IMG/VR virus record: IMGVR_UViG_3300036827_000091
Coordinates: 1 to 64,000 of that record
DNA from: a virus
Length of the DNA: 64,000 bases
Reading direction: 5' to 3' (one strand)
Below are positions 17,336 through 63,463 of the stretch, piece after piece (positions within the stretch are counted from its first letter, which is position 1; each line of letters begins with the position of its first letter). The notes beneath the pieces are model-generated. The model was not told where the DNA came from. It searched no databases and saw only the letters and a list, made by a program, of their open reading frames with translations. A program made the translations under genes and the position numbers.

Positions 17336-17532
17336 GGGCTGTACGTACAGAATGCCCGCGTCCCGCGGCCAGGCAGGCCGCTGCGGGCTTTCTGGCACGG
17401 GAACGGGCACGGGGGCACGCGGCGCTCCCAGGCGCTCCCAGAGCGTTCTGGGGGCTCGGCCAGGCGACGTGTACGCTGAGCCTGACACCCCCGCTCTGAG
17501 CTGTCCCACGCCGCCGACCAAAGCGGGGCTCC
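17336..17532 (+). promoter_or_regulatory. tail-lysis boundary: palindrome, tandem repeat, hairpin
   Basis: This 197-bp gap has no gene. At 17339-17350 lies a perfect 12-bp palindrome, CTGTACGTACAG, matching operator-like sites found elsewhere in the window. At 17421-17440 the decamer GGCGCTCCCA is repeated twice, overlapping a stem-loop (17434-17442 with 17447-17455, loop GCGT). A possible -10, TACGCT, lies at 17472-17477. I read it as the control region for the lysis genes; whether the hairpin terminates transcription is unclear. Confidence 0.5.
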
Positions 17533-18504
17533 ATGTCTGTTTCCCCACCCGGCCCGCCTGACGCGGGCAGCCTGCTGTCCAGGTCCAGGGCCGGCAGCGC
17601 CGCGTTCGCCGCGCACCACGCCGCGCTGCCCTGGACTGGGCGCAGGGGCGTGCCAGGCATCGACTACGCCTGGTCGAAGCCATCGATCCCCGCGCTGAAA
17701 GCCGCGGGCGAGGTGTTCGTCGCCCAGTATTTCTCCCCCGACGAGTCCAAAGACCTGACCCCGGCGCGGGCGCATGATCTGCAGGCCGCCGGCATCAGGA
17801 TCGTCGTCGTGTACGAATACGGCGCGCAAGACGCCCGGCGGGGCCGGGACGGCGGCCGGCGGGACGCGACCGCCGCCGAGGCGCAGGCCAAGGCGTGCCA
17901 CGTAGACGGCATCCCCATCTACTGGGCGATCGACTACGACGCGCCGCCCGGCGACCAGAGCCTGCTCGGCGATTACGCCCGCGGGTGGACCGACGTGCTG
18001 GGCATGGACCGGGGCGGCAACGCCTACGGCGGGTTCTGGCCGTTGTCCCGGCTGAAAGCCGCCGGCCTGGTCAAACGGCTGTGGGGCACCCCGGCATGGT
18101 CGGGGTCCAACTGGGCCACGTCCGGGCTGGTGCCGGACATCATGCAAGGCTCGATGATCACCATCGGCGGGGTGCAGTGCGACCTGGACGCGGGCTTGAC
18201 CGCCGACCCCGGGTGGTGGCCGAGGCCGAAGCCGGCCGCCACCGGGGCCACCTGGCAGTGGCTCGCCACCGACGGGAACCTGTCCCTGGCCGGGGTGGTC
18301 CGCGAGCTGAACCGGAGCCTGCCCGCGGGCAGCCAAATCCGCCCGGCGCAGGTGCTGCGCATGACCGTCGGCAAAAACGGCGGCCAATGGGACGCGCCGG
18401 GCACCAGCATCCTGGGCGACTGGGTGAACAAGGTGCTCGGCGACCCGGGCACCGACCCGCACACGGCCATCCCCAAAGGGGCCAAGCTGTGGGTGCTTCG
18501 GTAA
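17533..18504 (+). CDS. endolysin with DUF1906 glycoside hydrolase-like domain
   Basis: A 323-residue protein. Residues about 40-235 match the DUF1906 (Rv2525c-like) barrel: GIDYAWSKPSIPALKAAG, then FVAQYFSPDESKDLTP, IRIVVVYEYG, and PIYWAIDYDA with acidic residues at strand ends. Residues about 240-323 form a second, LysM-like wall-binding candidate. DUF1906 proteins are common lysins in actinophages and are thought to attack peptidoglycan glycans. No signal peptide is present, consistent with holin-dependent release. Small membrane-protein genes follow. Confidence 0.8.
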   Translation: MSVSPPGPPDAGSLLSRSRAGSAAFAAHHAALPWTGRRGVPGIDYAWSKPSIPALKAAGEVFVAQYFSPDESKDLTPARAHDLQAAGIRIVVVYEYGAQDARRGRDGGRRDATAAEAQAKACHVDGIPIYWAIDYDAPPGDQSLLGDYARGWTDVLGMDRGGNAYGGFWPLSRLKAAGLVKRLWGTPAWSGSNWATSGLVPDIMQGSMITIGGVQCDLDAGLTADPGWWPRPKPAATGATWQWLATDGNLSLAGVVRELNRSLPAGSQIRPAQVLRMTVGKNGGQWDAPGTSILGDWVNKVLGDPGTDPHTAIPKGAKLWVLR

Positions 18505-18767
18505 GCCTGCTGCGGCTGCTGCGGCAGCGGCGCGAAGGCCCGCACAGCTGCCCGGCGCAGCGGCGGGCCGCGGAGCTGGCCGCCGAGCTGTCCGGCATGG
18601 CCCGCAGCGGCCGGGTGTACGTGCGGGTCGGGCACGTGCTGGAAACCCTCGACCCGGAGCGCAAGCTGGCCCCGCCAGCGCCCCCGGCGCTGCCCCCCGA
18701 CGCCGATCCGCTCACCGGCTGCCTGCCGGTGGCCGCTGACCCGCCGGGCGCTGAGCGTGCCACATGA
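18489..18767 (+). CDS. hypothetical protein overlapping lysin end
   Basis: A 92-residue Arg/Ala/Pro-rich protein from GTG 18489, seven bases after an AAAGGGG site inside the lysin gene, so its first 16 bases overlap it. It ends in ATGA with the next gene. The N-terminal 55 residues look helical; the rest is Pro-rich. The coupling on both sides argues that it is translated, but its function is unknown. Confidence 0.5.
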   Translation: MGASVSLLRLLRQRREGPHSCPAQRRAAELAAELSGMARSGRVYVRVGHVLETLDPERKLAPPAPPALPPDADPLTGCLPVAADPPGAERAT

Positions 18768-19015
18768 CCACCTCGTCTGTGCTGCCGTGGCTGACCGGCC
18801 CGGCGGCGGCCCTGGTGGTTCTCATCTGGGTTGTGGTCATGGCCCGGCAAGACATCAGGGACCTGCGGCGGGCGCTGGAAGCCGAGCGCCGCAGGGCCGA
18901 CTCGGCGGAGGAAGCAGCCCGCGCCTCGCTGGCCGTGATCAGCGCGCTCACCGGGCAGCCGATCCCAGCGCCCCCGCGGGCTTATGCGGTTCAGGGACCG
19001 GTGGATGACACATGA
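18764..19015 (+). CDS. holin candidate: one membrane helix plus coiled coil
   Basis: An 83-residue protein with one strong membrane segment (about residues 11-27, AAALVVLIWVVVMA) followed by a charged heptad helix (RQDIRDLRRALEAERRRADS). This one-helix design next to a lysin is common for class III-like holins or lysis accessory proteins in actinophages. It overlaps neighbours on both sides by ATGA. Confidence 0.6.
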   Translation: MTTSSVLPWLTGPAAALVVLIWVVVMARQDIRDLRRALEAERRRADSAEEAARASLAVISALTGQPIPAPPRAYAVQGPVDDT

Positions 19016-19236
19016 AATGGCCTTGGAAGCGGAAAGCGCGAGCCGAGGCGGAGCAGTCTCAGGAGGCAGCCGTGCGAGTGCGCGCCGAGGTGATCATGCC
19101 GCTCCGACAGCTGGCGGCGGAAATAGACGACATGCGGATGGTGGACGCGCTGCCAGACGCGGTGCGGCAGATGATGGCGCGGCAATACAAGGAGGGGCCT
19201 GGTGACCCAGGCGGAAGCAACCCAAATCGGGATTGA
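19012..19236 (+). CDS. small charged protein, DUF7620-like
   Basis: A 74-residue protein starting MKWPWKRKARAEAEQ, a Trp/Lys-Arg-rich start seen in small actinophage proteins placed just after lysis genes. The rest is a helix ending in a low-complexity tail. It starts in the ATGA overlap with the holin candidate and overlaps the next gene by 35 bases. Membrane-surface association is inferred from the amphipathic Trp/Lys start. Confidence 0.6.
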   Translation: MKWPWKRKARAEAEQSQEAAVRVRAEVIMPLRQLAAEIDDMRMVDALPDAVRQMMARQYKEGPGDPGGSNPNRD

Positions 19237-19528: not shown

Positions 19529-19535
19529 CCGGGCG

Positions 19536-19666: not shown

Positions 19667-20179
19667 TTACCAGCCGATCCCGTATGCCCGCAGCCAGCGC
19701 CGCGCCGACCGGCGGGCCGCCAGCTCGGCGGCCAGGATCTGCGCGGCTTCCGGTGGCGGTTTCCGCCTGCCCCGGTAGTACACTTTGCCGCTGGGCGCGA
19801 CCCAGTAGCAGTTTTTCACGCTGTTGCACCGCTTGCACAGCAGCGCCGAGTTCCACAGGCAGGTCAGCCCGCCCATGATCCACGGCGTCATGTGGTCCAC
19901 CGGGAACCGTTCTGCGCCTTTCGCCTGCCGGGCATGGCAGTGGACGCACTGCCCCCGGTCGGCGCGCTCCACCATCCGGCGCAGGTGCGGGGTGATCTTC
20001 GAGGACCGCTGCCTGGACCGCTGCCGTGGCCGGAACCGGCGGTGCGCCAGCCGGTGCCGGTGCTCGTGCCGGGCGCGGCGGGTGACGCACAGCGCCAGCA
20101 GGCCGCCCGGGTTGCTGAACGCGGACCCGAGGAAGCCGGCTGCTGGCAGCAGCGGGGCCAGCAGCAGGCCCGCGTTCAC
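19667..20179 (-). CDS. HNH endonuclease with hydrophobic N-terminus
   Basis: A 170-residue protein. The HNH nuclease core lies at about residues 75-125: CVHCH, VDHMTPWIMGG, then N with LLCKRCN, giving the His-Asn-His metal site and two zinc-binding Cys pairs. The first 30 residues are unusually hydrophobic (NAGLLLAPLLPAAGFLGSAF) and may anchor it to the membrane. It starts at GTG 20179 in a GTGA overlap with the FtsK-like gene, so the two are coupled. A free-standing homing HNH is the alternative. Confidence 0.8.
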   Translation of the reverse strand: MNAGLLLAPLLPAAGFLGSAFSNPGGLLALCVTRRARHEHRHRLAHRRFRPRQRSRQRSSKITPHLRRMVERADRGQCVHCHARQAKGAERFPVDHMTPWIMGGLTCLWNSALLCKRCNSVKNCYWVAPSGKVYYRGRRKPPPEAAQILAAELAARRSARRWLRAYGIGW

Positions 20180-22140
20180 CCCGCCACCGCCTCGACCTTG
20201 TCGTCCCCGGCGTCCCGCACCTTTCCAGTGTCAAACAGAATGTCGATCGCCGAGGCCACCTCGGACACTTTGAACGTGGTGGCGCTGATGATCTGCCCGG
20301 GGGTCATCGCCCCCTGGACCCGCAGCACGCCCAGGATTTCCAGCTGCACCCGGGCCTGGCTGTCGGCTGCCGCCGCGATGCCCGCCAGGATGTCGCCTGC
20401 GGCTTCCACAGACGCGGCCAGCCTGGCCGCCACGCCCTGGTCCGGCGGGCAGCCAGGCAGCTGATTCGCGGCCTCATACGGGTCTTCCAGCCAGTCGGAC
20501 CGCATGGCCACCGACGGGCGCGGGGTCACGTCTCCGGTGGCGGCGAACCCGAGGCCCTCGGTGCGGGTGCCGTTGGGGAACTTTTTGGGCAGCTCGTTCG
20601 GGTTGGCCGGGATGTTGGCCATGCCGTGGCTGACCCGGTCCCCGGTGCGGAAGCAGATGACGTTTCCGCCAACCAGCATGCTGCGCAGCTCGCCCAGGCC
20701 CAGCTCTTTGATCGACGGCACCTGGCAGGCCAGCCGGACCCGGAAACCAACTTTCCGCCCCAGTTTCAGGATGTCCAGCAGCAGCGCGGGCGCGCCTTTG
20801 CACGCCAGCAGGATCGGGGCCTCGTCAATGGTGATTTCGGTGATGGGCAGCGCGAACTCGCGCAGCTGGTCCCCGGCCAGGCGCGCCGCCGCGGCGATGC
20901 CCAGCTGCTTCTCAGCGCGGGCCTTGGCCACCATCCAGTAGTCGTAGAAGCCGAAACCGCGCACCCGGCGGCCGGTCCGCGGGTGCGCCCATTCCAGGCC
21001 GGCCAGCTCCTGCGACCGGTCGAACATGGCGGCGTTCAGGCCGCGCAAGTATGTCATGCACTCGTCGGTGCCGACGGCGTACGGCACCTTGTCCCGCCAT
21101 GCGGGCAGCGCCTGCCCCATCTGCGGGTCCAGGATCACCGGGGCGACGATGCCGGATTGCAGGCTGATGGCCAGGCCCATGTCGATCAGGCCGGTTTTCC
21201 CGCTGCCCGGCGCGCCCGCGATGATCGTGTGCACCGTGCCGCCGCCCAGGCCAGGCCCGAACCACGCCTCGCGGACCGGCTCCCCGTCCGGGTAGCGGCC
21301 GATCACCGCCAGCCCGGTGGCCAGGTCCAGGCCGGCTCCGTCCCAGCGGCGCGGGGTGTCCAGCACGCCGCGGGGCAAGATGGTCAGCAGGCCGCGGGAC
21401 TCGTCGTCAGCGCCGGGGTCCGGCTCGGTGTAGCAGGTGATCACCGACTTGTGGAACGCGGCGGCCACCTCGCGCCGTTTGACGGCGATCTGCCCCATGT
21501 GGGTTTCGATGCCGTCGCACCTGATCGGCCACTGCTGCCCCGCTCCTGCCGGGCGGGCCGCGCCCAGCTCGGCATGCCATTTCTGCTTGGCGCACAGCGC
21601 CGCCCAGATGTCTTCCACCGTGGTGTCCGGCTTCTCGGGCTCGGCTGCCGGGCCGCGCCAGCGGTGCCGGTGCAGCCAGCTGCCGGACGGCACCGCCCAC
21701 CCGGTGACGCCCAGCGCCGACCACGGGCCGTACCGGAACAGGAACAGGGCCAGCGCCCACGCCGCCGCCCACCCGGCCATCGACTGGTTGTACTTGCGGA
21801 CCGCAGCCGGGCGGTGCCGGGTGCCTGCCACCGTGGCCAGCACGGTGACCGCGGCGGCGATGGCCACGGCCAGCAGGTGCACGTGGGAGGCGCGGGCGGC
21901 CAGCCCGGCCATGGCCGCCGCCGCCCAGCACAGCGGCACCAGCTGGAACCGGAACCGGAACGGGCGGCGCGCCGCCGGCGGCCGGCCGGTGGCCTCGCGC
22001 CATTGCGCGTCCACCATCTGCTTGATCTTGCGCTGCGTCTTGGCGTCCAGGTCCGGGGGCAGCGCCACCGAGGGACGCTGCGTTTTGCGCAGCGACCCCC
22101 GGTCAGCCGGACGCCGTCCCATGTGGCTTAGTGCTCCCAT
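20176..22140 (-). CDS. FtsK/TraSA-like DNA translocase
   Basis: A 654-residue protein with two to three membrane helices between residues 65 and 140, then an FtsK/SpoIIIE ATPase: Walker A GAPGSGKTG near residue 310 and Walker B ITIDEA near 433. Its C-terminus carries a winged-helix-like gamma-type segment (GAMTPGQIISATTFKVSEVASAIDIL). In Streptomyces plasmids and AICEs one such protein moves double-stranded DNA between hyphae. The neighbouring Spd-like membrane genes and HutC regulator fit that. Two in-frame ATGs (22140, 22122) arise from an 18-bp tandem duplication. Confidence 0.85.
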   Translation of the reverse strand: MGALSHMGRRPADRGSLRKTQRPSVALPPDLDAKTQRKIKQMVDAQWREATGRPPAARRPFRFRFQLVPLCWAAAAMAGLAARASHVHLLAVAIAAAVTVLATVAGTRHRPAAVRKYNQSMAGWAAAWALALFLFRYGPWSALGVTGWAVPSGSWLHRHRWRGPAAEPEKPDTTVEDIWAALCAKQKWHAELGAARPAGAGQQWPIRCDGIETHMGQIAVKRREVAAAFHKSVITCYTEPDPGADDESRGLLTILPRGVLDTPRRWDGAGLDLATGLAVIGRYPDGEPVREAWFGPGLGGGTVHTIIAGAPGSGKTGLIDMGLAISLQSGIVAPVILDPQMGQALPAWRDKVPYAVGTDECMTYLRGLNAAMFDRSQELAGLEWAHPRTGRRVRGFGFYDYWMVAKARAEKQLGIAAAARLAGDQLREFALPITEITIDEAPILLACKGAPALLLDILKLGRKVGFRVRLACQVPSIKELGLGELRSMLVGGNVICFRTGDRVSHGMANIPANPNELPKKFPNGTRTEGLGFAATGDVTPRPSVAMRSDWLEDPYEAANQLPGCPPDQGVAARLAASVEAAGDILAGIAAAADSQARVQLEILGVLRVQGAMTPGQIISATTFKVSEVASAIDILFDTGKVRDAGDDKVEAVAG

Positions 22141-22155
22141 GTGGCCTAGTGCTCC
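22120..22155. repeat. 18-bp tandem duplication at FtsK-like start
   Basis: Two adjacent 18-bp units (22120-22137 and 22138-22155) differ at one base. Each carries an ATG on the minus strand, so the duplication adds six in-frame residues (MGALSH) ahead of the original start MGRRP and also covers the stop of the upstream gene. Confidence 0.8.
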
Positions 22156-23075
22156 ACGAAGTCGGCTTCGGCGATGCCCTCAGCCGCGTCCTGGGTCTCC
22201 TGCACCGGCCCGTAGTTGGACACGACGTGCTCTTTCAGCCCGGTCAGGGCGTCCATCGCCTGATCCCGCTCTTTTTGCATGGCGGCCAGGTGGGATGCCG
22301 CGTCCACCGCCTTGCCGGCCGCGGTCGAATCATTGCGGATCACCTGGCCCAGCTCGTCGGCCATCGTCGTGATCTTGTTCACCACCTCGCCTGTGTCCAG
22401 GCCCTGCTCGCAGGCGCTGATCGCCTCGTCGCACTGCTCGACGGTGGTGTCGTAGTTCAGGTCTGACACTGCTCCTCCTGTGGTTGACGGGCTGCGCCCG
22501 TTGCTGCTGGCCTGGCCGTTGCTGGCCTTGTGGCCGTTGCTGGCCGGGCCGTTGCCCGGGGTCTGGCCGTCGGCCAGCGGCGGGTCGCTTGCGTGACAGC
22601 TGCAATCCGGGTCGGTGCAGCCTGCTCCTCGTGCCATGTCGTGTTCCCCGTTCCCGGCAGCGATCCGCCGTTTCTCCGCGTCCAGCTGGTCGGTCATGGT
22701 GGGCTCGGCCGCCTGCTTCCGGGCCACTTCCAGCCGGTGCTTGTGGGCGGCCATCTCCGCCCGGACCCGGGCGATCTGGCTTTGGTGGTCAGCGACCGCC
22801 CCGGCGTGGTCCCGCTCTGCTTCCGCCCGGGACAGCTTGTGCTCGTTCCAGCCTTTCGCCCACCCGTGGCGGGCGTGCGGCAGGCCGCGGAAAACCTCGC
22901 CCGCCCAGAACCCGCCCACTGCGGCGCGGGCGGCGCGGGCTTTCGCCCGCTGGGCGGGCGAAGTGCCCTGGCGGGCTTTCTGGTATTTCGCCCACCGGGC
23001 GCTGGCTGGCTTGCGCAGCGCCTCCACTCCCCGGGAGCACGCCCAGGCGAGGCCGATCAGGAACAGCAGCTCCAT
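22146..23075 (-). CDS. membrane-anchored coiled-coil protein of transfer module
   Basis: A 309-residue protein with an N-terminal hydrophobic segment (MELLFLIGLAWACSRG), a basic region, a long coiled coil at about residues 85-125, a Cys/His cluster (CTDPDCSCHA), a low-complexity Asn/Ser linker and an acidic helical C-terminal part. The gene lies upstream of the translocase with only five bases between. Such anchored coiled-coil proteins accompany TraB/TraSA in actinomycete transfer loci, but no specific family is recognised. Confidence 0.65.
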   Translation of the reverse strand: MELLFLIGLAWACSRGVEALRKPASARWAKYQKARQGTSPAQRAKARAARAAVGGFWAGEVFRGLPHARHGWAKGWNEHKLSRAEAERDHAGAVADHQSQIARVRAEMAAHKHRLEVARKQAAEPTMTDQLDAEKRRIAAGNGEHDMARGAGCTDPDCSCHASDPPLADGQTPGNGPASNGHKASNGQASSNGRSPSTTGGAVSDLNYDTTVEQCDEAISACEQGLDTGEVVNKITTMADELGQVIRNDSTAAGKAVDAASHLAAMQKERDQAMDALTGLKEHVVSNYGPVQETQDAAEGIAEADFVEH

Positions 23076-23078
23076 GGC

Positions 23079-23501
23079 CTACCCCTGTGTCTGGCTGATG
23101 CCATGCTGTACGTCGCCAGGCAGTCCGTTGACCGCGGCGAACGGGGTGGCCCCGGCGACAGCCATTATGGCCAGGGCGGCGGCGATCCAGTAGGTGGACT
23201 TTTTCGCTGACCCTTTCGGGTGCACGCCGTGCAGCAGCTCGGCGAACATGAGGATGACGATGATGGCGGTCAGCGTGGCCGCGCTGATGCCCAGCCACTT
23301 GCCGCTGGCCAGCCCGAGCAGGCCGGCGACGAAAGCCAGCGCCCGAGCGATCCAGTGCAGCACCGGCCCGGTGAACCCGAACAGCAAGATGCCGATGAAC
23401 ACCGCCCAGACGCGGGCCTTGGCAAACCGGTTGCGGAAGTACGCCCAGACGGACAGCGCGACCATGATCGCGCCGATGCTGCCTTGTGCCAGTCCTGACA
23501 T
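23079..23501 (-). CDS. multi-pass membrane protein, Spd-like
   Basis: A 140-residue protein with four predicted membrane helices (about residues 5-22, 30-50, 52-80 and 105-125). Its size and location beside an FtsK-like transfer gene recall the Spd (spread) proteins of Streptomyces plasmids, which help intramycelial spread. The match is by layout, not by motif. Confidence 0.6.
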   Translation of the reverse strand: MSGLAQGSIGAIMVALSVWAYFRNRFAKARVWAVFIGILLFGFTGPVLHWIARALAFVAGLLGLASGKWLGISAATLTAIIVILMFAELLHGVHPKGSAKKSTYWIAAALAIMAVAGATPFAAVNGLPGDVQHGISQTQG

Positions 23502-23510
23502 CGCCTGCTC

Positions 23511-23924
23511 CTAGATCACGTGAGTCAGCCACAGCACCAGGGCCACCGTGGCGTAGAAGGCGGCCCGCTTGGGCAGCGAGTCCCCGGCCAGCACAAGCAG
23601 GTACAGGACTGGTGCCTCGATGAAAGCGTGGAACACGCCATAGGCCAGCCGCGGGTATTTCAGCCCGCGGGGCAGGTAGTCCGCTGCGGCCTTGTGCAGC
23701 GCCCAGTAGTCCATGCACGACGGGGGGTTCCCGTGCACCCAGCTGGCCCCGGCGAAAATGGCCCCCACCGCGGCAGCCGATGGCACCCGCCACGACCGCC
23801 GCGGCGCGGGCGCTTCTTCACGCGGGCGCGCAGGCGCGTACTGCGCCTTGGGCTCCTGGCCGGCCCCGGGCTTTTCCGCCTCCGACGGCCGGACCGGGAG
23901 GGCCACCACGTTGCCCGCTGTCAT
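23511..23924 (-). CDS. membrane protein of transfer module
   Basis: A 137-residue protein with a Pro/Glu-rich cytoplasmic start of about 45 residues and then three hydrophobic segments ending at the very C-terminus (AAFYATVALVLWLTHVI). It overlaps the next upstream gene by four bases. It belongs to the same set of small membrane proteins as its neighbours; function is inferred only from context. Confidence 0.6.
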   Translation of the reverse strand: MTAGNVVALPVRPSEAEKPGAGQEPKAQYAPARPREEAPAPRRSWRVPSAAAVGAIFAGASWVHGNPPSCMDYWALHKAAADYLPRGLKYPRLAYGVFHAFIEAPVLYLLVLAGDSLPKRAAFYATVALVLWLTHVI

Positions 23925-24148
23925 GCCGCTGCTCCGTCTAGCTCCAGGGCTCGCTGGTACAAGGCGCTGGCCTCGGCGTGCAGCACCGAGCCACGCTGGG
24001 GGTGCCGGTAGGCCACAGACCGCAGCATGTCGAACGCGGCGGCCAGCTGGGCCTCCCCGGTCGGCGCGCCTTGCACGCGGCTCTTGTGCCGCGCCATGCG
24101 CGCACGAGCCCGGGTCGGCTTGCCGGTGCCCTGCCGCCTGCCAGCCAT
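23921..24148 (-). CDS. small basic protein
   Basis: A 75-residue protein beginning MAGRRQGTGKPTRARARMARHK, strongly basic for the first 25 residues, then a helical domain. It could bind DNA or membrane lipids. The start at 24148 overlaps the upstream stop as TGATG, showing coupling inside the transfer operon. Confidence 0.6.
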   Translation of the reverse strand: MAGRRQGTGKPTRARARMARHKSRVQGAPTGEAQLAAAFDMLRSVAYRHPQRGSVLHAEASALYQRALELDGAAA

Positions 24149-24336
24149 CAGCGGATCACCGCCCACAGCCGCGGGGCGAAATTGGCCAAGGCCACCGGCA
24201 GCGCCATCAGCGCCCACAGCGCCAGCAAGGTGTAAAACGGGGCGACTGCCAGCGCCATGCACATGACAGCGACGGCCCAGGCGCACCAGTAAAGCTTCGG
24301 GTGCGTGCAGTGCCAGCAGCGAGGGTGGTATGTCAT
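24148..24336 (-). CDS. small two-helix membrane protein
   Basis: A 62-residue protein, MTYHPRCWHCTHPKLYW at its start, with a CxxC plus His that could bind metal, then two hydrophobic helices. TGATG overlaps join it to both neighbours. It is another member of the Spd-like membrane group. Confidence 0.6.
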   Translation of the reverse strand: MTYHPRCWHCTHPKLYWCAWAVAVMCMALAVAPFYTLLALWALMALPVALANFAPRLWAVIR

Positions 24337-24530
24337 CAGTAGCGCACCTCCTGCCGGCCGAGGCGGATCGAAAACTCGGCCCACCGGCCCTGGTCCCAGC
24401 GGTTGGCTTCCAGCCACGACTTCAGCAGCTCGCGGGCCTCGCCTTCGTCGTCCCGCAGGTCAGTGATGTTCGCGGTGATCCGGTCCTCGAAGTTGCCTTT
24501 CCGGTGGACCTCCAGCTCGGTGCTGGCCAT
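24336..24530 (-). CDS. first gene of the leftward transfer operon
   Basis: A 64-residue acidic protein with AAGGAGG just before ATG 24530. It is the promoter-proximal gene of the block that runs to the HNH gene, divergent from the HutC regulator. The short beta-then-helix sequence (ANITDLRDDEGEARELLKSW) has no recognised family. Its leader crosses the two GTATA operators, so it should be controlled by the regulator. Confidence 0.6.
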   Translation of the reverse strand: MASTELEVHRKGNFEDRITANITDLRDDEGEARELLKSWLEANRWDQGRWAEFSIRLGRQEVRY

Positions 24531-24569
24531 GGCTGCCTCCTTCCGCCGTGAGCGCGTATGCCTACGAAT

Positions 24570-24587
24570 GTATATACCGGTATAGAC
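24570..24587. promoter_or_regulatory. paired HutC/GntR-type operators GTATATAC and GTATAGAC
   Basis: Two octamers, GTATATAC (24570-24577) and GTATAGAC (24580-24587), both fit GT-N-TA-N-AC, the half-site pattern known for HutC-type GntR regulators. They are spaced 10 bp, one helical turn, and lie between the divergent regulator gene and transfer operon. Binding there would control both directions. Confidence 0.68.
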
Positions 24588-24606
24588 CGTTGTCCACTCC
24601 CCCGGA

Positions 24607-24612
24607 TACCCT
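24607..24612 (+). promoter_or_regulatory. -10 TACCCT of leaderless HutC gene promoter
   Basis: TACCCT ends six bases before ATG 24619 and there is no ribosome site, the layout of leaderless actinobacterial messages in which transcription starts at the A of the ATG. Confidence 0.55.
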
Positions 24613-24618
24613 GAGCGC

Positions 24619-25356
24619 ATGATCACATCCGTGAAGTGGCGGCAGATCGCCCGCGACCTGCGTAACCGGATCGCCCGGGGTGAGCTTCGCCCAGGTGACC
24701 CGCTGCCGTCCGAGCGGGAGCTGGAGGCCCGTCACGGAGTCGCCCGCGGCACCGCCCGGGTGGCGCTGCAGCACCTGGTGCAAACCGGCGCGGCGGTGGA
24801 CGGCAGCCCGCGCCGGGTGGCACACGCCGAGCTGCTGACCGTGCATATCACCCGCACCGCGGACCGCACCTCGCCCGGCGAATCGCCTACCCTGGGCGCG
24901 GACTCCTGGCTGGGCGACATGCGGGCGGCCGGGCGAGAGCCCGCCCACGAGCTGGACGTGATCACCCGGCAGGCCAGCCGCGAGCTGGCCCAGCGGCTGG
25001 AAGTAGGCGAAGGCTCAGCGGTGGTGGCCCGGCGGCAGCTGCGGCGCGCCGGCGAGCGCCCGCACAATGAGATCACCTACTGGTACCCGGCGGGCGTGGC
25101 CCGCGGGACTCCGCTGGCTAGCCCGGCCAGCATCATCGAAGGGGCGCTGGCATGGCTGGAAACCAACCGGGGGCAGCTGCTGCACGAGGTGGAGATCACC
25201 GCGAGGATGCCCGGCGAAGACGAGGCGGGCCGGCTGCAGATCCCCGGCGGGGTGCCGGTGGCTGTGGTGTGGCGGACGTCGCGGACCCTGGCCGGGGTGC
25301 CGATGGTGACGTCGATGGCCGTGTACCCTGCGGACCGGACCAGGCTGGCCCTCTGA
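24619..25356 (+). CDS. GntR family regulator, HutC subfamily (KorSA/TraR-like)
   Basis: A 245-residue repressor. The N-terminal winged helix (about residues 5-70) has the GntR signature: RIARGELRPGDPLPSERELEARHGVARGTARVALQ, read in parts. Residues 85-240 form a UTRA ligand domain (an LLHEVEIT-type strand and a VWRTSRT strand). HutC members such as KorSA and TraR repress transfer genes and themselves in Streptomyces plasmids and AICEs. The operators just upstream and the divergent membrane-protein operon fit the same job here. It appears to be translated from a leaderless message. Confidence 0.88.
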   Translation: MITSVKWRQIARDLRNRIARGELRPGDPLPSERELEARHGVARGTARVALQHLVQTGAAVDGSPRRVAHAELLTVHITRTADRTSPGESPTLGADSWLGDMRAAGREPAHELDVITRQASRELAQRLEVGEGSAVVARRQLRRAGERPHNEITYWYPAGVARGTPLASPASIIEGALAWLETNRGQLLHEVEITARMPGEDEAGRLQIPGGVPVAVVWRTSRTLAGVPMVTSMAVYPADRTRLAL

Positions 25357-25453
25357 TCCACGGCGACGCCTCGATGGGGGAGGTGCCGCTGGCCGCGCAT
25401 CACGGCGCTGGCAGCTGGCCGCCGATGGCCCCGGCCGGGGAAGGCTGCGATCG

Positions 25454-25726
25454 CTAGGGCGTGTTTTGCCCCGGAACCGAGGAGCCGGGCGACCTCGCGG
25501 GGGGTGAGCGGCTCCACCGGGTACCGCCGCTTAGGCTTACCCTTCGGTCACGGGGATAGTAACCCTCTAGCTGTGGCTGCCTGCTGTCGTCATCCTCCAG
25601 CAGCGCAGCGGCCCTGTAAGCGGTTTCGCAGTCGGCGGCCTCGCCCACCACCCGGGCAAGCTCACCATCCTGCGGGTCACGGACGACCAGCCAAGGACCC
25701 TCGACCGCGCTGTACCGGCCGCTCAC
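25454..25726 (-). CDS. hypothetical protein
   Basis: A 90-residue protein from GTG 25726, overlapping the previous stop as GTGA. The first 60 residues look folded (VSGRYSAVEGPWLVVRDPQDG, with acidic helix); the last 30 are Ser/Arg/Pro-rich. It converges on the HutC gene across a 97-bp gap that holds only the GC-rich palindrome CCCCGGCCGGGG. Confidence 0.5.
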   Translation of the reverse strand: MSGRYSAVEGPWLVVRDPQDGELARVVGEAADCETAYRAAALLEDDDSRQPQLEGYYPRDRRVSLSGGTRWSRSPPARSPGSSVPGQNTP

Positions 25727-25920
25727 CGGCTGTCCCCGGTATCGGATTGCCCCGGAACCGATACCCACCGCTTGGCGGCAGCCATCTGGGTTTCGTGCTT
25801 CTCGCGGGCCGTCCGGTAATACTCGGCGGCAGGAACGAGGTCGGCCTCCCCGCAGGAGCACACGTACTCATCACACCCGCAGTTGCGGCACACGCCGTCA
25901 TAGTCAGGTGGTCCCGGCAC
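25723..25920 (-). CDS. small zinc-ribbon protein
   Basis: A 65-residue protein. GTG 25920 is six bases after a perfect AGGAGG and is preferred over an ATG farther upstream. CRNCGCDEYVCSCG near the N-terminus provides a four-Cys metal site, followed by an amphipathic helix. It overlaps both neighbours. Related CxxCGC motifs recur in other accessory proteins of this window. Confidence 0.6.
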   Translation of the reverse strand: MPGPPDYDGVCRNCGCDEYVCSCGEADLVPAAEYYRTAREKHETQMAAAKRWVSVPGQSDTGDSR

Positions 25921-26347
25921 TGTCAGCCTCCTGGGTTGTGTTTTTCTCTCCAACCGATACTGACGGGGACGGCTCAGCGGAGTAGATGATCTCCAGCAGG
26001 CAGTAACGCCCCTTCTGCGACCGCAGTTCCCCTAGCAGGTCATGGCCGCCGACGTTGATGTCCTCGTCAGTCCACAGGTAGCCGGTGATCTCCGTATAGG
26101 CGTGCCGGAATGTGGCGTCGCCCGCGCCGAGCAGTTCCCGGAGCGCACCGTCGATCATGTCCTCATCGCTGCGGGGCTCAGCCGCAGTCCAATACCGCAC
26201 CGTCAGATACCGGCCGAACCGGTCCAGATCCCCGCTGATCATTTCAGCCAGTGGCTCATCGCCGGGGTCAAGGAACAAGATGTCCATCCCCTCGCCGCGG
26301 TCATGCTCGGCGAGGGTGCCTCTGTAGCGCCGTGCCTCGTCTGTCAC
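25904..26347 (-). CDS. hypothetical acidic protein
   Basis: A 147-residue acidic protein starting at GTG 26347 (GTGA overlap with the DUF2637 gene). It has alternating helices and strands (MDILFLDPGDEPLAEMISGD; VRYWTAAEPRSDEDMIDG) and looks like a single compact domain. Many such proteins sit beside SpdA-like genes, but I recognise no family. Confidence 0.6.
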   Translation of the reverse strand: MTDEARRYRGTLAEHDRGEGMDILFLDPGDEPLAEMISGDLDRFGRYLTVRYWTAAEPRSDEDMIDGALRELLGAGDATFRHAYTEITGYLWTDEDINVGGHDLLGELRSQKGRYCLLEIIYSAEPSPSVSVGEKNTTQEADSAGTT

Positions 26348-27018
26348 TTGCCGCCCCCGTTCTGCTGGCTGGCCAGGAACACCCGGGCCTGGTGCTGGCT
26401 GATGCCGTGCCGGGCGGCGAACGACCGGCGTCCCATCGGCTTGCGCTTCTGCTCGTCTTGCGCGGCCAGCGCGGCCAGCTGCGCGTACGACGGAACGTCG
26501 TTCGCAGGCTGCCTGCGCGCCTTGCTCTTGCCCGGCTGCCGGGCTGGGCTCGTGCTGAGGCCATCTTCCGTCCCGGGCTCCCGCCCGTCCGTCTTCCCGG
26601 CGTTCAGCTTTGCGATGCCCAGCCCGGTGCCCAGGCTCGCGGCAGCCGCCAGCGGGGCAGCAGCTGCAGCGAGTTTCGCAGCCCATGGCGCGGCAGGGCC
26701 GACGTGGGCTATGTTCCCAGCTAGCGAGGCAAACAGTCCGGCTGCGGTCAGCGCCCACGCCCACACTTTCACGTAAACCTGTTCGTGACGCCTGACCGCG
26801 CTGTACAGGCGAAGCTCGCCCACCACCAGGAACGAGTCGAGCAGCAGGGGGAAGCCAACGGCCACCCAGCCGGGCATCTGCGCCCGCTGGGTGGCGAAGT
26901 CATACAGGCCCCGGTAAGACATGGCCAGCGCGGCGGCCGAGGCTGCCCAGGTGACGATCGCCACCCCGCGGTCCGCCAGCCAGATAGAGTCCCGCTGTTC
27001 TGCCTGCTTGGCTGCCAT
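26344..27018 (-). CDS. DUF2637 membrane protein (SpdA-like)
   Basis: A 224-residue protein. Residues 15-135 hold four hydrophobic helices in the DUF2637 pattern (SYRGLYDFATQ, then GFPLLLDSFLVVGELRLY). DUF2637 is found in actinomycete plasmid and AICE transfer regions. The C-terminal 60 residues are soluble, with a helix-turn-helix-like end (MGRRSFAARHGISQHQARVFL). It supports the reading of this block as a conjugative transfer module. Its leader carries the TGTACTTACA site shared with the divergent gene. Confidence 0.75.
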   Translation of the reverse strand: MAAKQAEQRDSIWLADRGVAIVTWAASAAALAMSYRGLYDFATQRAQMPGWVAVGFPLLLDSFLVVGELRLYSAVRRHEQVYVKVWAWALTAAGLFASLAGNIAHVGPAAPWAAKLAAAAAPLAAAASLGTGLGIAKLNAGKTDGREPGTEDGLSTSPARQPGKSKARRQPANDVPSYAQLAALAAQDEQKRKPMGRRSFAARHGISQHQARVFLASQQNGGGK

Positions 27019-27034
27019 CTGCCTCGCCTCCTGG

Positions 27035-27044
27035 TGTACTTACA
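27035..27044. promoter_or_regulatory. TGTACTTACA operator-like dyad in divergent promoter
   Basis: The decamer TGTACTTACA lies in the 61-bp gap between divergent genes starting at 27018 (-) and 27080 (+). It is one of at least six near-palindromic copies in intergenic DNA of this window and is well placed to control both genes. Confidence 0.55.
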
Positions 27045-27079
27045 TTGGTGAGTGTACGACCACGGAAGGACAGCCCGCC

Positions 27080-27295
27080 ATGACCCAGCCGGACCGGCCC
27101 GTCACCCCCAACCGCAGCGCCGGCCGGATCGAGGACGCCCTGTGGCAGCCGTTCCTGGCCAAAGCCCGCGCCGAGGGCCTGACCAACACCGATGCGTTCC
27201 GGCTGCTGATCCGCGAGTGGACCAGCTCGCCGGATGGCCCTGCCCGCAGGGGGCAGGGCCGCCGGTCACGCTTGCGTGGTGCCCGTCCTGGTTAG
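27080..27295 (+). CDS. small ribbon-helix-helix-like DNA-binding protein
   Basis: A 71-residue protein with a core at residues 12-48 (RIEDALWQPFLAKARAEG, then TNTDAFRLLIREW) that resembles the strand-helix-helix of CopG/RHH proteins, and a basic C-terminal tail. It is the only rightward gene between the HutC gene and 47.7 kb. Its divergent position and the dyad in its promoter suggest an autoregulated repressor. It ends in a four-base convergent overlap with the next gene. Confidence 0.6.
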   Translation: MTQPDRPVTPNRSAGRIEDALWQPFLAKARAEGLTNTDAFRLLIREWTSSPDGPARRGQGRRSRLRGARPG

Positions 27296-29316: not shown

Positions 29317-29370
29317 TGTGCTTACAGCTTACCGGCTGGCCTGCATTCTGTCAACAGTGCAGGCCAGCCG
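29317..29370 (-). promoter_or_regulatory. promoter P1 with operator dyad and 13-bp inverted repeat
   Basis: On the minus strand: TTGACA (29354-29349), 17 bp, TAAGCT (29331-29326), overlapping TGTAAGCACA (29326-29317) at the expected start point. A perfect 13-bp inverted repeat (29333-29345 with 29358-29370) flanks the -35. It drives the gene starting at 29294. Confidence 0.82.
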
Positions 29371-35136: not shown

Positions 35137-35509
35137 GTCCTGCCTTCCTCTGCCTAGTGTCTTGCTTGTGTGGTGCTGCACTCCCACAGGCTCCGGTAGT
35201 CCGGGGCGGTGTCGTCGGGGTTTGGCTGTCCCGCTGAGCCGCTCACCCGCTTGCCGGGGCTGTGGTAAGACGTGCTTTCCAGGTCCCGGCGTGGGGTTGA
35301 CGGGGCACCCGACCAGCCCACCCGGGACCTGCTGGCCGTCCAGACTCGCGCAGGGGCTTCCTGCGCACCTCATAATCACTCACCGGATCGCCATCTGTGC
35401 TCACCGGCTACTCGGCGCGGAGCCCGGGTCCGGGGGGTTCCTACGGCGACAGATCGCCGCGGCTGGTCCCTGGCCCGGGTTGTCCCGGGCTCCGCTGTCT
35501 TGCTGTTGT
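35137..35509 (-). ncRNA. structured non-coding leader or small RNA
   Basis: This 373-nt stretch has no credible gene but lies just downstream of strong promoter P6. It contains several exact inverted repeats: 12 bp (35417-35428 with 35484-35495), 6 bp (35444-35449 with 35454-35459), 7 bp (35348-35354 with 35360-35366), and a 14-bp helix with one bulge (35281-35295 with 35317-35330). A local hairpin, CCCGGG 35474-35479 with 35484-35489, competes with the 12-bp helix, so two folds are possible. It could be an independent RNA or a regulatory 5' leader of the 54-residue gene. I recognise no known riboswitch or tRNA. Confidence 0.5.
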
Positions 35510-35544
35510 ACTTACAGCTTAGCGCCTAGTGTCTATTCTGTCAA
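35507..35544 (-). promoter_or_regulatory. promoter P6 with TGTAAGTACA operator
   Basis: Minus strand: TTGACA (35544-35539), 17 bp, TAAGCT (35521-35516), overlapping TGTAAGTACA (35516-35507). The TAA of the -10 is also the stop of the upstream membrane-protein gene. A hairpin CCCCTG/CAGGGG (35547-35552, 35560-35565) sits just upstream. Confidence 0.82.
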
Positions 35545-35749
35545 CACCCCTGGCCTGCTCAGGGGTTGCGGCCCACAGCCAGATGGCCCGTGCCATCGCG
35601 CCCATGCCGGTCACGACGAAAATCAGCAGAACAGCCAGCCAGGCGTAGGCGCGGGCATTCCATGCGTGGCCGATGAAGATCACCGGCACCAGGCACAGTG
35701 TCATGGCCGCCCAGGACGCTGCCATCCAGCGGACCACGTTGTCAGGCAT
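35519..35749 (-). CDS. two-helix membrane protein overlapping promoter P6
   Basis: A 76-residue protein with membrane helices at about residues 10-28 and 36-58. Its C-terminus (ARGVDRIDTRR) is encoded by the P6 -35 and spacer, and its TAA lies in the -10. The same GVDR sequence ends the protein at 33851-34189 because both read through a TGTTGACAG box. Possibly an exclusion or membrane-stress protein; no family. Confidence 0.62.
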   Translation of the reverse strand: MPDNVVRWMAASWAAMTLCLVPVIFIGHAWNARAYAWLAVLLIFVVTGMGAMARAIWLWAATPEQARGVDRIDTRR

Positions 35750-39276: not shown

Positions 39277-39289
39277 TGTACGTACACTA
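39277..39289 (-). promoter_or_regulatory. operator TGTACGTACA with nested -10 TAGTGT
   Basis: The 10-bp palindrome TGTACGTACA (39277-39286) overlaps a -10-like TAGTGT (39289-39284 on the minus strand), whose TAG is the stop of the upstream nuclease gene. No good -35 is visible. It would give the Sak4 and DUF669 genes their own regulated promoter. Confidence 0.55.
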
Positions 39290-49397: not shown

Positions 49398-49441
49398 TCA
49401 TCGAGCACGGGGTCCTCATGAAGACTGGGAGGAGGTCCGCG

Positions 49442-49737: not shown

Positions 49738-50014
49738 GGAGGGGGCGTACTGCCATCGCCATCAGCTGCCCGCGGCGGTGTGCGGGTGCCCGGCCAGCCG
49801 GGGGCAGCTGCGCGCCGCCGAGCTGGCCATCGCCGACTGGGAGCGGCTGGAACAGCTAGCCGACCAGGCGGCGAACAGCGACAGCGCGCCGTTCGCGGCG
49901 CAGTGGGACGGGACCTGCCAAGGGTGCGGGCAAAGATGGACGGCCGGGGATATGGTGGCCTGGTCGGCTGATGACGGCAAGGTGATGCACGCAGCCTGCG
50001 TGCACGGATTCTGA
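49730..50014 (+). CDS. zinc-binding protein with central helix
   Basis: A 94-residue protein: CHRH and CGCP at the N-terminus, a helical middle (RAAELAIADWERLEQLADQA), and CQGCGQRW with a final HAACVHGF. It overlaps the previous gene by eight bases. Function unknown; nucleic acid binding is plausible. Confidence 0.6.
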   Translation: MAEEGAYCHRHQLPAAVCGCPASRGQLRAAELAIADWERLEQLADQAANSDSAPFAAQWDGTCQGCGQRWTAGDMVAWSADDGKVMHAACVHGF

Positions 50015-50040
50015 CCAGGCATAAGGCAAGGGGAGCGACC

Positions 50041-50193
50041 ATGAAACAGCGGTTCAGGATTTCGGCGGGCGAATGGGTGTGCGGCAGCTGCGGCGTGCCC
50101 ATGACCGAGGCTGGCGACGGCGAAGGGGGCGTGATCATGGCACACAAGGATGGCTGCGCCGCGGTGGCTGCGCTCCGCGGGGCCAGCGGCTAG
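50041..50193 (+). CDS. 50-residue zinc-binding protein
   Basis: ATG 50041, six bases after GGGGAG, opens a 50-residue frame with WVCGSCGVPM and later MAHKDGC, enough for a Cys2-His-Cys zinc site. It is the fourth small Cys-rich protein in the run. No known family. Confidence 0.55.
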   Translation: MKQRFRISAGEWVCGSCGVPMTEAGDGEGGVIMAHKDGCAAVAALRGASG

Positions 50194-50336
50194 GGTCAGT
50201 CCTGCCGCTGCCCCCGCTGGCGGCTTTCCCGGGGCACCCCGCGCTGCTGATGGTGGCGACCGTTTCAGGCGCTGGGCGCTCCCCTGCTAGCGGGAGGCGC
50301 TACCGATGGCGATGCTAACAGACACAGGCAGAAGGC

Positions 50337-51875
50337 ATGACGATGACTGAACCACAGCGCGGCCAGCCCGGCACCTGGCGCTACCTGGCATTCTGGCGCG
50401 GCGATGGCGACATGGACCTGAAAGCCACCTTGGCCGGGCTGCCGTGCAACGACATGCACGCCGCGCACTTGGTCGCCGGGGAAATCTGGCCAGGCGAGCT
50501 GCACCACGCCACCGACCTGGGCCGCTGGCACGTGTGGGACGGGCGCTGCCACCGGCCGGACGACTGTGCGCTGATCGACCGGAAAATCAACCAGCTCACC
50601 TGGTGGTGTGAGGCGGTGATCGGCCAGGCCCGGCAGCAGGTGGCTGCGCAAGTCACCGCCGCCAACCCGGGAGCGGACACCAAAACGGTCGGCCAGGCGA
50701 TCAAAACAGCATGGGCACCGTGGGGGGAAGCAGAAAAATACGCGGCCGGGCTGCGGCGCACCGCCGGGCTCACCGCGCTGCGCACCCGGCTGGCCGGGGT
50801 GTGCGGGGTGAACGAGGCATGGCTCGAAGACGGCCTGCCCGACTACCTGAACGTGGCCAACGGCATCCTGCACCTGCCCACACTGACCTTGCACCCGCAC
50901 GACCCGCGGGCCAGGATCACCTACTGCGTGCCCGTGGCCTGGAACCCGCAAGCCAGCTGCCCATGGTTCAATGCGATGGCGCTGCGCGCCTGCGACGGCA
51001 GCCAGGTGGTGGCCGACTACCTGATCCGGGTGCTTGGGTACTGCCTGATCGGCGACAACCGGGAGCAGAAGATCTTTTTCCTGTCCGGCGACACCGGGTC
51101 CGGCAAATCCCAGGTGCTGGGCGCAATCGCCGAGGTGCTGGGCACGCTGCACCACAGCTCCCAGAACTCGCTGATCAGCGTGGAACGCAACGGGCGCAAC
51201 GCCCGGGTCGAATGGTCCTGCGCGGGCGCACGGATCGTGACCATCACCGAGACGTCCGGGCACAACACCACCGACGAGGCCCAGGTGAAACGGCTTACCG
51301 GGGAGGCATACATCAGCGTGGACCGGCACTATTCCAAGACGGAGGTGAAAGTGAAAGTGACGTTCACCATCATCCAGTCCACCAACGAGATGCAGACCCT
51401 CACCAATTTCGACAGCGCCATGGGCCGCCGGGTCGAAGTGCTGCCCATGTCAAAAATCGAAATCCCGTCCGAGCAGCAGGTGAAAGGTCTGGGCAAGCTG
51501 GTGGCTGACCGCGAGGCCGAAGGCATCCTGGCGCTGCTGGCGTCGGCAGCGCAGGCATATTACGCCGAGGGGCTGCACCCGCCAGCCGAAGTGCTGGCTG
51601 AGACAGCGCGGTACCGCGCCCAGCAGAACACGCTGGAAGATTTCATGGCTGAATGCGTCACCATCGTCCCCTCCCTGAACGGGAGCCGCCCGGCGTGGGC
51701 CGGCCAGTCGGCGGTGTGGCGCGCCTACCTGGACCATTCGGCGGGCGGGCCACGGCTGCGCAAAAGCCAGTTTCTCGGCCAGCTCCGCGACCACCCGGCG
51801 GTCACCTACAACGAGGGCTCCCGCCGGTTCGAGGGCATCTCGCTGATCGAAGGGATCGAAGCCCATGAACGATGA
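50337..51875 (+). CDS. D5-like SF3 helicase
   Basis: A 512-residue protein with the D5 N-terminal region (NVANGILHLPTLTLHPHDP is the hallmark segment, residues about 178-196) and an SF3 ATPase: Walker A GDTGSGKSQ near residue 250, ITETSG as the B motif area, and IIQSTNEMQT as motif C. It is the replicative helicase, working with the separate Prim-Pol. A 143-bp gap upstream holds an imperfect hairpin (GCGCTCCC/GGGAGGCGC near 50277-50301). Confidence 0.88.
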   Translation: MTMTEPQRGQPGTWRYLAFWRGDGDMDLKATLAGLPCNDMHAAHLVAGEIWPGELHHATDLGRWHVWDGRCHRPDDCALIDRKINQLTWWCEAVIGQARQQVAAQVTAANPGADTKTVGQAIKTAWAPWGEAEKYAAGLRRTAGLTALRTRLAGVCGVNEAWLEDGLPDYLNVANGILHLPTLTLHPHDPRARITYCVPVAWNPQASCPWFNAMALRACDGSQVVADYLIRVLGYCLIGDNREQKIFFLSGDTGSGKSQVLGAIAEVLGTLHHSSQNSLISVERNGRNARVEWSCAGARIVTITETSGHNTTDEAQVKRLTGEAYISVDRHYSKTEVKVKVTFTIIQSTNEMQTLTNFDSAMGRRVEVLPMSKIEIPSEQQVKGLGKLVADREAEGILALLASAAQAYYAEGLHPPAEVLAETARYRAQQNTLEDFMAECVTIVPSLNGSRPAWAGQSAVWRAYLDHSAGGPRLRKSQFLGQLRDHPAVTYNEGSRRFEGISLIEGIEAHER

Positions 51876-53103: not shown

Positions 53104-53400
53104 GAATCGCACCTCAAAAACGGGATGATCATGAAACGAGGTAGTCATGGTGAGACTACAGGGTTCAAAGGATTTGGGAGGATTCTGGAAGATTCTAGGG
53201 GATTCTAGGATCAGTGAGAGCATGTTGCGACCAAAGTGCGAAAACGGGATGATCATGGTTAAAAAGTGCGAAGCTCTGACCTGCGGTTATGCCCCTATTT
53301 CACACTTTTACACTTTTAACATCCTCTCCGCGTAAGAGAGAGAGAGAGAGAGTATAGGAGTAAGGGGTAGGGGAAACTGCGAAAACGTGAAATGAGGGCA
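53104..53400. other. candidate replication origin: AT-rich DNA with iterons
   Basis: This gene-free stretch has much lower GC than its surroundings and a dense set of repeats. There are three perfect-frame 10-bp units starting GATTCT (53181-53210) plus a degenerate fourth at 53171-53180. AAAACGGGATGATCATG occurs at 53117-53133 and 53241-53257, AAAGTGCGAA at 53233 and 53263, ACACTTTT twice in tandem at 53302-53317, and (AG)9 at 53335-53352. Iterons in helical phase beside AT-rich DNA, directly after the replication genes, is the usual appearance of an origin. Confidence 0.6.
53335..53352 (+). repeat. (AG)9 dinucleotide repeat
   Basis: Eighteen bases of alternating A and G at the edge of the AT-rich segment; all-purine on one strand, so it may form unusual DNA structure or be slippage-prone. 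Confidence 0.9.
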
Positions 53401-53438
53401 TGAGCTGAGGATGGATAAGGAATGATGGTAGGCTGCTG

Positions 53439-53450
53439 GTGTACGTACAC
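53439..53450. promoter_or_regulatory. GTGTACGTACAC palindrome
   Basis: A perfect 12-bp palindrome, one of the TGTACGTACA family, 136 bases before the gene at 53587. A -10-like TAGGCT lies just upstream (53429-53434). The rest of 53401-53586 shows no gene I can support, only two AGGCAGGAGGCAG stretches near the next start. Confidence 0.55.
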
Positions 53451-62751: not shown

Positions 62752-62760
62752 GAGGGGCCG

Positions 62761-63060
62761 GTGCAGATCCTGTCCGGCGGCACCCCGTACATTTTCGTGT
62801 CGCTCACCGGCCCGCTGGCGGACCTGACCGGATTTCCGGTGAAAATGGCGCTGGTGCCCCGGGGCAGCTACCCGGCCAGCGGCGACTGGAAGGCCGCTGC
62901 GTGGCTGGCCCCGTTCCCGGGGGCGGCCAAGGAGATCGCCGTGCAGCGTGACCCGGCTGTCTGGCCGGACGGCGACTACTCCTGCTACGTGCAGGTCACC
63001 GCCTCCCCCGAGCTGGTGCCGCTGCGCGCCGGCCGGGTCACCATCGGGCAGGAGCTGTGA
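62761..63060 (+). CDS. small structural protein
   Basis: A 99-residue protein from GTG 62761 with AGGAGGGG upstream. A single beta domain (SGGTPYIFVSLTGPLADLTG; PDGDYSCYVQVTASPEL) like the Ig-like or tail-spike accessory folds of phages. GTGA overlap with the next gene. Confidence 0.6.
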   Translation: MQILSGGTPYIFVSLTGPLADLTGFPVKMALVPRGSYPASGDWKAAAWLAPFPGAAKEIAVQRDPAVWPDGDYSCYVQVTASPELVPLRAGRVTIGQEL

Positions 63061-63254
63061 TCATCGCCGCGCTGGCTGCCTTGCCCGGCTTGTTCGCCGT
63101 GTACCTGGCCGCGGGCATCCTGCTGGACAAGGCAGGCGAGGCGCAGTGGGCTGCGATCCAGCGGGCCTGGGACGCCACGGGCGTCACCGTGACTGGTGCC
63201 TACCGCGCTGTGGAGCTTAAAGAAGTGCTCGACCGGTCACAGCACCTGCTGTAG
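63057..63254 (+). CDS. small single-helix membrane protein
   Basis: A 65-residue protein from GTG 63057 (GTGA overlap): one N-terminal membrane helix (IIAALAALPGLFAVYLAAGILL) and a soluble helical tail. Could be a holin-like or virion-associated membrane protein. Confidence 0.6.
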   Translation: MIIAALAALPGLFAVYLAAGILLDKAGEAQWAAIQRAWDATGVTVTGAYRAVELKEVLDRSQHLL

Positions 63255-63463
63255 CGTGATGGCAGGGGGCTGATGGACACACACCCGGGTGCCTGGCCCC
63301 TTGCCCCGGCGGCAGGGGGCTGCTACCCCCCCCGGCGGCTCCCTGCCCCGCTGGGAGCCCCGCTGCCAAAACAAGTCACTGTAAGTACACTGTGTCACAC
63401 GCGATCCTGCGGCCACCTCGTGTACCTTTGACGCCATCACGTTGTTCTAAGCCAGCGGGGTGA
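63255..63463. promoter_or_regulatory. intergenic region with hairpin and TGTAAGTACA site
   Basis: No gene is seen in these 209 bases. They contain GGCAGGGGGCTG twice (63264, 63311), a run of nine C, a 7-bp hairpin GGCTCCC/GGGAGCC (63337-63343, 63353-63359), and TGTAAGTACA (63380-63389), the same dyad as in the accessory promoters. Likely a transcription boundary before the last genes. Confidence 0.5.

What the first reader, a model, noticed from the sequence alone, without database searches (positions are those of the whole stretch)
17339..63389. TGTAC(G/T)TACA dyads at six scattered intergenic sites
TGTACGTACA occurs at 17340-17349, 39277-39286 and 53440-53449; TGTACTTACA or its complement at 27035, 35507 and 63380. 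All six are in intergenic control regions in front of different modules: lysis, transfer, accessory, recombination, post-origin and distal genes. The accessory-promoter dyads are degenerate versions. One regulator may therefore coordinate most modules of this genome.
Basis: seen in the sequence. Interest (0 to 1): 0.75.

Follow-up and report, generated by a model that had tools for sequence, protein, structure and literature searches.

The report
Genome-wide operators for one phage repressor
An uncultivated soil phage and its relatives carry the same ten-letter palindrome in front of many separate gene blocks and never inside genes, and the likely switch protein that reads it is a tiny ribbon-helix-helix regulator encoded right beside one of the sites.

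Summary
Six TGTAC(G/T)TACA dyads lie at the stated places, all in non-coding DNA (9.3% of the record), against 0.04 expected; they are the top-ranked intergenic dyad words of the genome. The operator recurs in relatives: G011 has 9 sites (counting TGTCAGTACA), G001 has 2, and seven contigs found only by their capsid gene carry it in front of a head-gene operon. The best candidate regulator is inside the window: g37 (27080-27295, +), a 71-aa Arc-like ribbon-helix-helix (RHH) protein. Its gene is divergent from a DUF2637 gene, with TGTACTTACA between them. All three genomes with this RHH keep the arrangement, even where the pair is inverted. Seven other sizeable relatives have neither; an eighth has a different RHH and no operator. 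At 35507, and at its G011 counterpart, the operator abuts the -10 of a strong sigma70-type promoter, which fits repression by occlusion. Most likely an autoregulated RHH repressor controls several modules together. Binding, direction of control and a role in lysogeny are inferred, and the GntR regulator g34 is the main rival. New variant of a known kind.

The parts
17340..17349 (.). operator TGTACGTACA, 4 bp after the stop of tail gene g21, ahead of a terminator-like hairpin and the endolysin gene g22 (17533)
   Evidence: endolysin phrog_13480
27035..27044 (.). operator TGTACTTACA in the divergent gap between g36 (DUF2637) and g37 (RHH); same arrangement in G001 and G011
35507..35516 (.). operator TGTAAGTACA (minus strand) abutting the -10 TAAGCT of a minus-strand promoter; same promoter plus operator in G011 at 60537
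35517..35546 (-). sigma70-type promoter TGTTGACAGAAT-N-TAAGCT (-35 TTGACA, 17-bp spacer, -10 whose last base is the first base of the operator)
39277..39286 (.). operator TGTACGTACA in the 28-bp gap between exonuclease g61 and Sak4-like g60; G011 has a weak TGTCCCTACA in the matching place
53440..53449 (.). operator TGTACGTACA ahead of g79, downstream of an AT-richer repeat-bearing stretch (possible origin)
63380..63389 (.). operator TGTAAGTACA ahead of g98; G011 has sites 3829 and 4182 in the similar neighbourhood
29317..29326 (.). degenerate operator TGTGCTTACA after the -10 of the promoter of g39; the only degenerate accessory dyad above background
27080..27295 (+). g37, 71-aa Arc-like ribbon-helix-helix protein, candidate regulator
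   Evidence: phrog_6506 E 1.1e-5; 3 of 3 homologs match; VapB26 profile match E 0.0013
26344..27018 (-). g36, DUF2637 membrane protein with an HTH-like C-terminus, divergent partner of g37
   Evidence: PF10935 E 1.1e-8; conserved pair
24619..25356 (+). g34, GntR/UTRA (HutC-type) regulator, rival candidate
   Evidence: own promoter has GTATATAC and GTATAGAC and no decamer
20176..22122 (-). g27, TraB-like plasmid transfer ATPase
   Evidence: NF041214 E 2.7e-11, below the family cut-off; 29-35% identity to Streptomyces and other actinomycete plasmid proteins
27852..28355 (-). g38, superinfection-exclusion-type lipoprotein, near g37
   Evidence: phrog_4980 E 2.6e-31
35140..35512 (-). about 370 nt without a called gene downstream of the operator-linked promoter, folding somewhat better than shuffles (z -2.6); possible RNA or leader
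   Evidence: G011 counterpart

Best explanation
The decamers are operators of one phage-encoded, autoregulated ribbon-helix-helix repressor, g37. A g37 dimer would read the palindrome TGTAC(G/T)TACA with its two-stranded ribbon. At its own divergent promoter (27035) it sets its own level and that of the DUF2637 gene. At 35507 it covers the -10 and start region of a sigma70-type promoter and shuts it by occlusion. The other sites bring recombination genes, origin-proximal genes, lysis genes and distal genes, and in relatives the head-gene operon, under the same control, so that modules are silent while the protein is present and rise together when it is lost. Shown: the sites, their intergenic placement, their recurrence and conserved positions, the RHH family assignment, the gene-site adjacency in all three RHH-bearing genomes, the co-occurrence. 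Inferred: that g37 binds them, that it represses, and that this serves lysogeny or an early-to-late switch.
For: Six of six sites non-coding, P about 6e-7, and top-ranked dyad words. g37 is Arc-like RHH (weak structural support). RHH, TGTACTTACA and DUF2637 are together in window, G001 and G011, with the pair inverted in G011. Relatives without this RHH (G003, G005-G010; shared polymerase, capsid 85-88% identical where present) have no operator. G037 has a TraB-like gene, GntR-type HTH proteins and a different RHH, and no operator. The ribbon segment NRSAGRI is invariant among the three RHH proteins. The promoter-plus-operator at 35507 is kept in G011. The head-operon site is kept in seven contigs retrieved by capsid alone.
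Against: No binding data. GntR g34 and DUF2637 g36 co-occur with the operator just as g37 does in the three genomes. Only three genomes carry this RHH; the relatives are not independent, and G011 was fetched by a promoter pattern overlapping the first bases of the operator, so the co-occurrence statistic is optimistic. Operator-bearing fragments such as G015 and G038 lack the early region, so their regulator is unseen. For most sites no clear promoter is recognisable; the average enrichment is modest and partly circular.
Confidence: 0.68

Rival explanations
1. The operators belong to the GntR/UTRA (HutC-type) regulator g34 of the same module, a plasmid-style transfer repressor whose regulon has spread over the phage.
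For: g34 is a clear GntR/UTRA protein and is well conserved in the three operator-bearing genomes. GntR-family sites are often short palindromes with GT and AC arms (established knowledge). In G001 the g34 promoter has a loose TGTCGGTACA.
Against: The exact operator is absent from the g34 promoter in all three genomes; in the window that promoter has GTATATAC and GTATAGAC, which fit the HutC-type consensus recalled from general knowledge and differ from the decamer in their centre. Weak GntR homologs occur in G006 and G010 and GntR-type proteins in G037, without operators.
Confidence: 0.15
2. The operators are read by another protein: the HTH-like C-terminus of the DUF2637 protein g36, an uncalled phage regulator in the missing 15 kb, or a host regulator.
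For: g36 is the other gene flanking the site at 27035 and has an HTH-like tail by inspection; the record is incomplete.
Against: A host regulator would not explain why sizeable relatives with 85-88% identical capsids lack all sites. DUF2637 proteins are not known to me as global regulators.
Confidence: 0.12
3. The decamers are not transcription operators but sites for DNA partition, packaging or transfer, for example for the TraB-like translocase.
For: RHH proteins also serve in plasmid partition and relaxosomes (established knowledge); several sites follow stop codons with no clear promoter; a TraB-like protein is encoded.
Against: Sites are dispersed, single or paired, rather than clustered; one lies on a -10 in two genomes; positions track operon starts; G037 has TraB-like but no sites.
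Confidence: 0.05

Closest known systems
ArtA of staphylococcal plasmid pSK41 (PMC6540685)
   Same: Small RHH master regulator, gene divergent from transfer genes, six binding sites including its own promoter, represses several modules.
   Different: Plasmid of Firmicutes; no sequence relation found; here the sites also stand before lysis, recombination and head genes of a phage.
Stoperator system of cluster A mycobacteriophages, L5-type repressor (PMC9283540)
   Same: One phage regulator with sites dispersed through short intergenic gaps of the whole genome.
   Different: There more than 20 asymmetric 13-bp sites and a 183-aa repressor with two HTH-type domains bound as a monomer; here 6-9 palindromic 10-bp sites and a 71-aa RHH candidate.
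SvtR and AvtR of archaeal viruses (PMC5569661)
   Same: Small viral RHH proteins that repress their own promoter and a few other viral promoters.
   Different: Archaeal transcription; different and longer operators; AvtR is a tandem RHH.
Arc/Mnt of phage P22 (established knowledge)
   Same: Phage RHH repressors; phrog_6506 is annotated Arc-like.
   Different: Arc and Mnt act at one immunity region; here the operators are genome-wide.

Membership tests
Ribbon-helix-helix (Arc/CopG) regulators, for g37 | sequence profile of strand-helix-helix | tested here: met
   phrog_6506 3 of 3; VapB26 by profile E 0.0013; Pfam RHH_1 only weak in 2 of 3, best E 0.056
Ribbon-helix-helix (Arc/CopG) regulators, for g37 | fold: one strand then two helices, dimer through the ribbon | tested here: inconclusive
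   monomer model pLDDT 69 shows helices 12-31 and 36-49, strand not formed; top Foldseek matches VapB26, CopG, AvtR but E above 1
Ribbon-helix-helix (Arc/CopG) regulators, for g37 | binds a short palindromic operator and autoregulates | not testable with these tools
   only the position of the site beside the gene in three genomes supports it
ArtA-type plasmid master regulator | RHH gene divergent from its neighbour with operators there and at several other modules | tested here: met
   arrangement of g37, g36 and the six sites; likeness of design only
ArtA-type plasmid master regulator | sequence relation to ArtA | tested here: not met
   a profile of the three RHH proteins found VapB26 and two unrelated chains, no ArtA, in the PDB at E up to 10
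Cluster A mycobacteriophage stoperator system | asymmetric 13-bp sites oriented with transcription | tested here: not met
   the site is a 10-bp palindrome; three window copies are perfectly symmetric; a slight orientation bias, 13 to 4, P 0.05, was seen in the asymmetric copies
Cluster A mycobacteriophage stoperator system | about 180-aa two-domain HTH repressor | not tested
   no such protein was noticed among the genes searched, but not every gene was searched and the record is a fragment
HutC-type GntR operator (g34) | the decamer stands at the regulator's own promoter | tested here: not met
   no exact decamer in the g34 promoter in window, G001 or G011
phiC31 repressor operators | same decamer in phiC31 | tested here: not met
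   no TGTAC(G/T)TACA in AJ006589; its own conserved repeats are not annotated in the record and were not compared

The most novel reading that the evidence does not exclude
A 71-aa RHH protein is the immunity master repressor of a group of uncultivated actinophage-like phages that carry a plasmid-type transfer module (TraB-like ATPase, DUF2637, GntR), silencing early, recombination, lysis and head genes at once through dispersed 10-bp operators: an RHH counterpart of the mycobacteriophage stoperator system.
Probability: 0.4. Interest if true: 0.7.

Novelty: new variant of a known kind. Interest (0 to 1): 0.55.

Why it matters
The regulator-operator pair is small enough to test in a standard laboratory strain.

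Tried and rejected
The phiC31 operator system was suspected from memory: phiC31 holds no such decamer. Rfam gave nothing convincing for the window or the RNA region at 35140-35512 nor for its G011 counterpart. Single-protein searches for relatives of g37 and g36 found none, nor did g37's alignment in genome contigs; in viral contigs the three-member alignment found only G001 and G011. Six other viral contigs with a promoter-operator match have 37-46% GC and are probably chance. The capsid scan of genome contigs gave no prophage, hence no host. Enrichment of sigma70-type promoters at all sites is modest and partly circular because the motif itself can score as a -10. The 370-nt region is little conserved between window and G011 beyond the promoter.

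Full report
Observation. They are all the sites within one mismatch of TGTACGTACA in the window, with 0.28 expected by shuffles and 0.037 under an order-3 Markov model. My gene calls leave 9.3% of the record non-coding and all six sites fall there. Ranking every near-palindromic 10-mer by intergenic and coding counts puts TGTACGTACA and TGTAAGTACA first and second. The gene caller was an ad hoc script, so exact starts are uncertain.

Relatives. Polymerase and capsid searches place the window in a large group of uncultivated phages found in IMG/VR and not in the GTDB genomes. Their capsid is 36-42% identical to the best isolated phages listed. G011 (75 kb) and G001 (35 kb) share many genes with the window at roughly 25-90% identity. 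G011 has five exact sites and four of the form TGTCAGTACA; eight are non-coding and one overlaps a stop codon. G001 has two, both non-coding. A matrix from these 17 sites separates them cleanly: true sites score 16.7 or more, coding background reaches 8.8 in the window and 9.7 in G011, with one coding outlier at 15.9 in G001. Seven further relatives of 39-84 kb have none. Among 48 capsid-bearing contigs eight have the site, and in seven of them it stands in front of the homolog of G011 20074-21519 at the start of the head-gene operon, in tandem in some. G029 matches G011 and G016 resembles G017, so these are about five lineages. They were retrieved by capsid alone, without reference to the motif.

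Regulator. The site at 27035 lies between the divergent genes g36 (DUF2637) and g37. g37 matches the Arc-like repressor family phrog_6506, as do its homologs in G001 and G011. A profile of the three finds the RHH antitoxin VapB26. The structure model is weak, but its two helices fit and several top matches are RHH proteins. In G001 and G011 the same two genes are divergent across TGTACTTACA, the pair being inverted in G011 relative to the window. Among 12 records with the polymerase, the three with this RHH are the three with the operator. This is supportive rather than conclusive: the relatives are not independent, and G011 was fetched with a promoter pattern that overlaps the first bases of the operator. 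G037 has a TraB-like gene, GntR-type HTH proteins and a differently built RHH, and no operator. The GntR regulator g34 is the main rival: it co-occurs too, but the exact operator is absent from its own promoter in all three genomes, and in the window that promoter carries GTATATAC and GTATAGAC instead.

Mechanism. At 35507 the operator begins with the last base of a -10 (TAAGCT) that has a TTGACA -35 17 bp upstream; G011 keeps the same promoter and operator with an 18-bp spacer. Binding there should block RNA polymerase. The divergent site suggests autoregulation. For the other sites the promoter is not evident, and several follow a stop codon directly, so occlusion of an unrecognised promoter and a roadblock are both open. 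The copies that are not perfectly symmetric show a slight bias to (A/C)AGTACA in the direction of transcription, 13 to 4, P 0.05, too weak to rest on. A superinfection-exclusion-type lipoprotein gene lies next to g37, which fits an immunity region, but no integrase was noticed among the genes searched and lysogeny was not shown.

Degenerate sites. Eight minus-strand promoters with TGTTGACAGAAT stand in the window. About five have TGTNNNNACA after the -10, but only 29317 scores above background, and the comparable G011 promoters, except the one at 60577, lack the dyad. They may be weak operators or copies of one promoter.

Placement. By design this resembles ArtA of pSK41 (PMC6540685), SvtR and AvtR (PMC5569661) and, in its genome-wide reach, the stoperator system of cluster A mycobacteriophages (PMC9283540); but site shape and protein differ from the last, and no sequence relation to ArtA was found. 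I rate it a new variant of a known kind. Shown: sites, placement, conservation, family, adjacency, co-occurrence. Inferred: binding, repression, role.

Noticed in passing
G008: 1233, 8414, 10269, 62473, 68415, 74865, 75568, 80919 (loci L058-L062): Relative G008 lacks the decamer but has another dyad, GTGTTTACAC or one mismatch from it, at eight intergenic places; a gene between two of them (74902-75564) encodes an HTH-like protein. Perhaps a parallel operator system with a different regulator.
   Followed up: partly
window 35140-35512 (-); L032 150-541 (-): About 370 nt without a called gene follow the operator-linked promoter in window and G011; both fold somewhat better than shuffles (z -2.6 and -2.3) with a long closing stem near the 5' end, no Rfam match, little sequence conservation. 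Possible regulatory RNA.
   Followed up: partly
window 20176-27295; G001 2241-9449; G011 44526-51236: A plasmid-type module (TraB-like ATPase, DUF2637, GntR/UTRA, several small membrane proteins) sits inside a tailed-phage genome; the TraB-like protein has no match in the isolated-phage collection but matches actinomycete plasmids.
   Followed up: partly
window 29354, 30260, 31200, 31812, 33876, 35544, 36338, 37320 (-): A family of early promoters shares an extended -35 block TGTTGACAGAAT, itself a dyad (CTGTCAACAG is the top intergenic dyad word of G011), also in G001; the conservation goes beyond a plain -35 and may mark an activator or a second regulator.
   Followed up: partly
window 53104-53440: AT-richer stretch with repeats of AAAACGGGATGATCATG and a GA run between a RecD-like helicase gene and g79; possible replication origin.
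   Followed up: no
window 24560-24600: GTATATAC and GTATAGAC boxes in front of the GntR gene g34, probably its own operator.
   Followed up: partly
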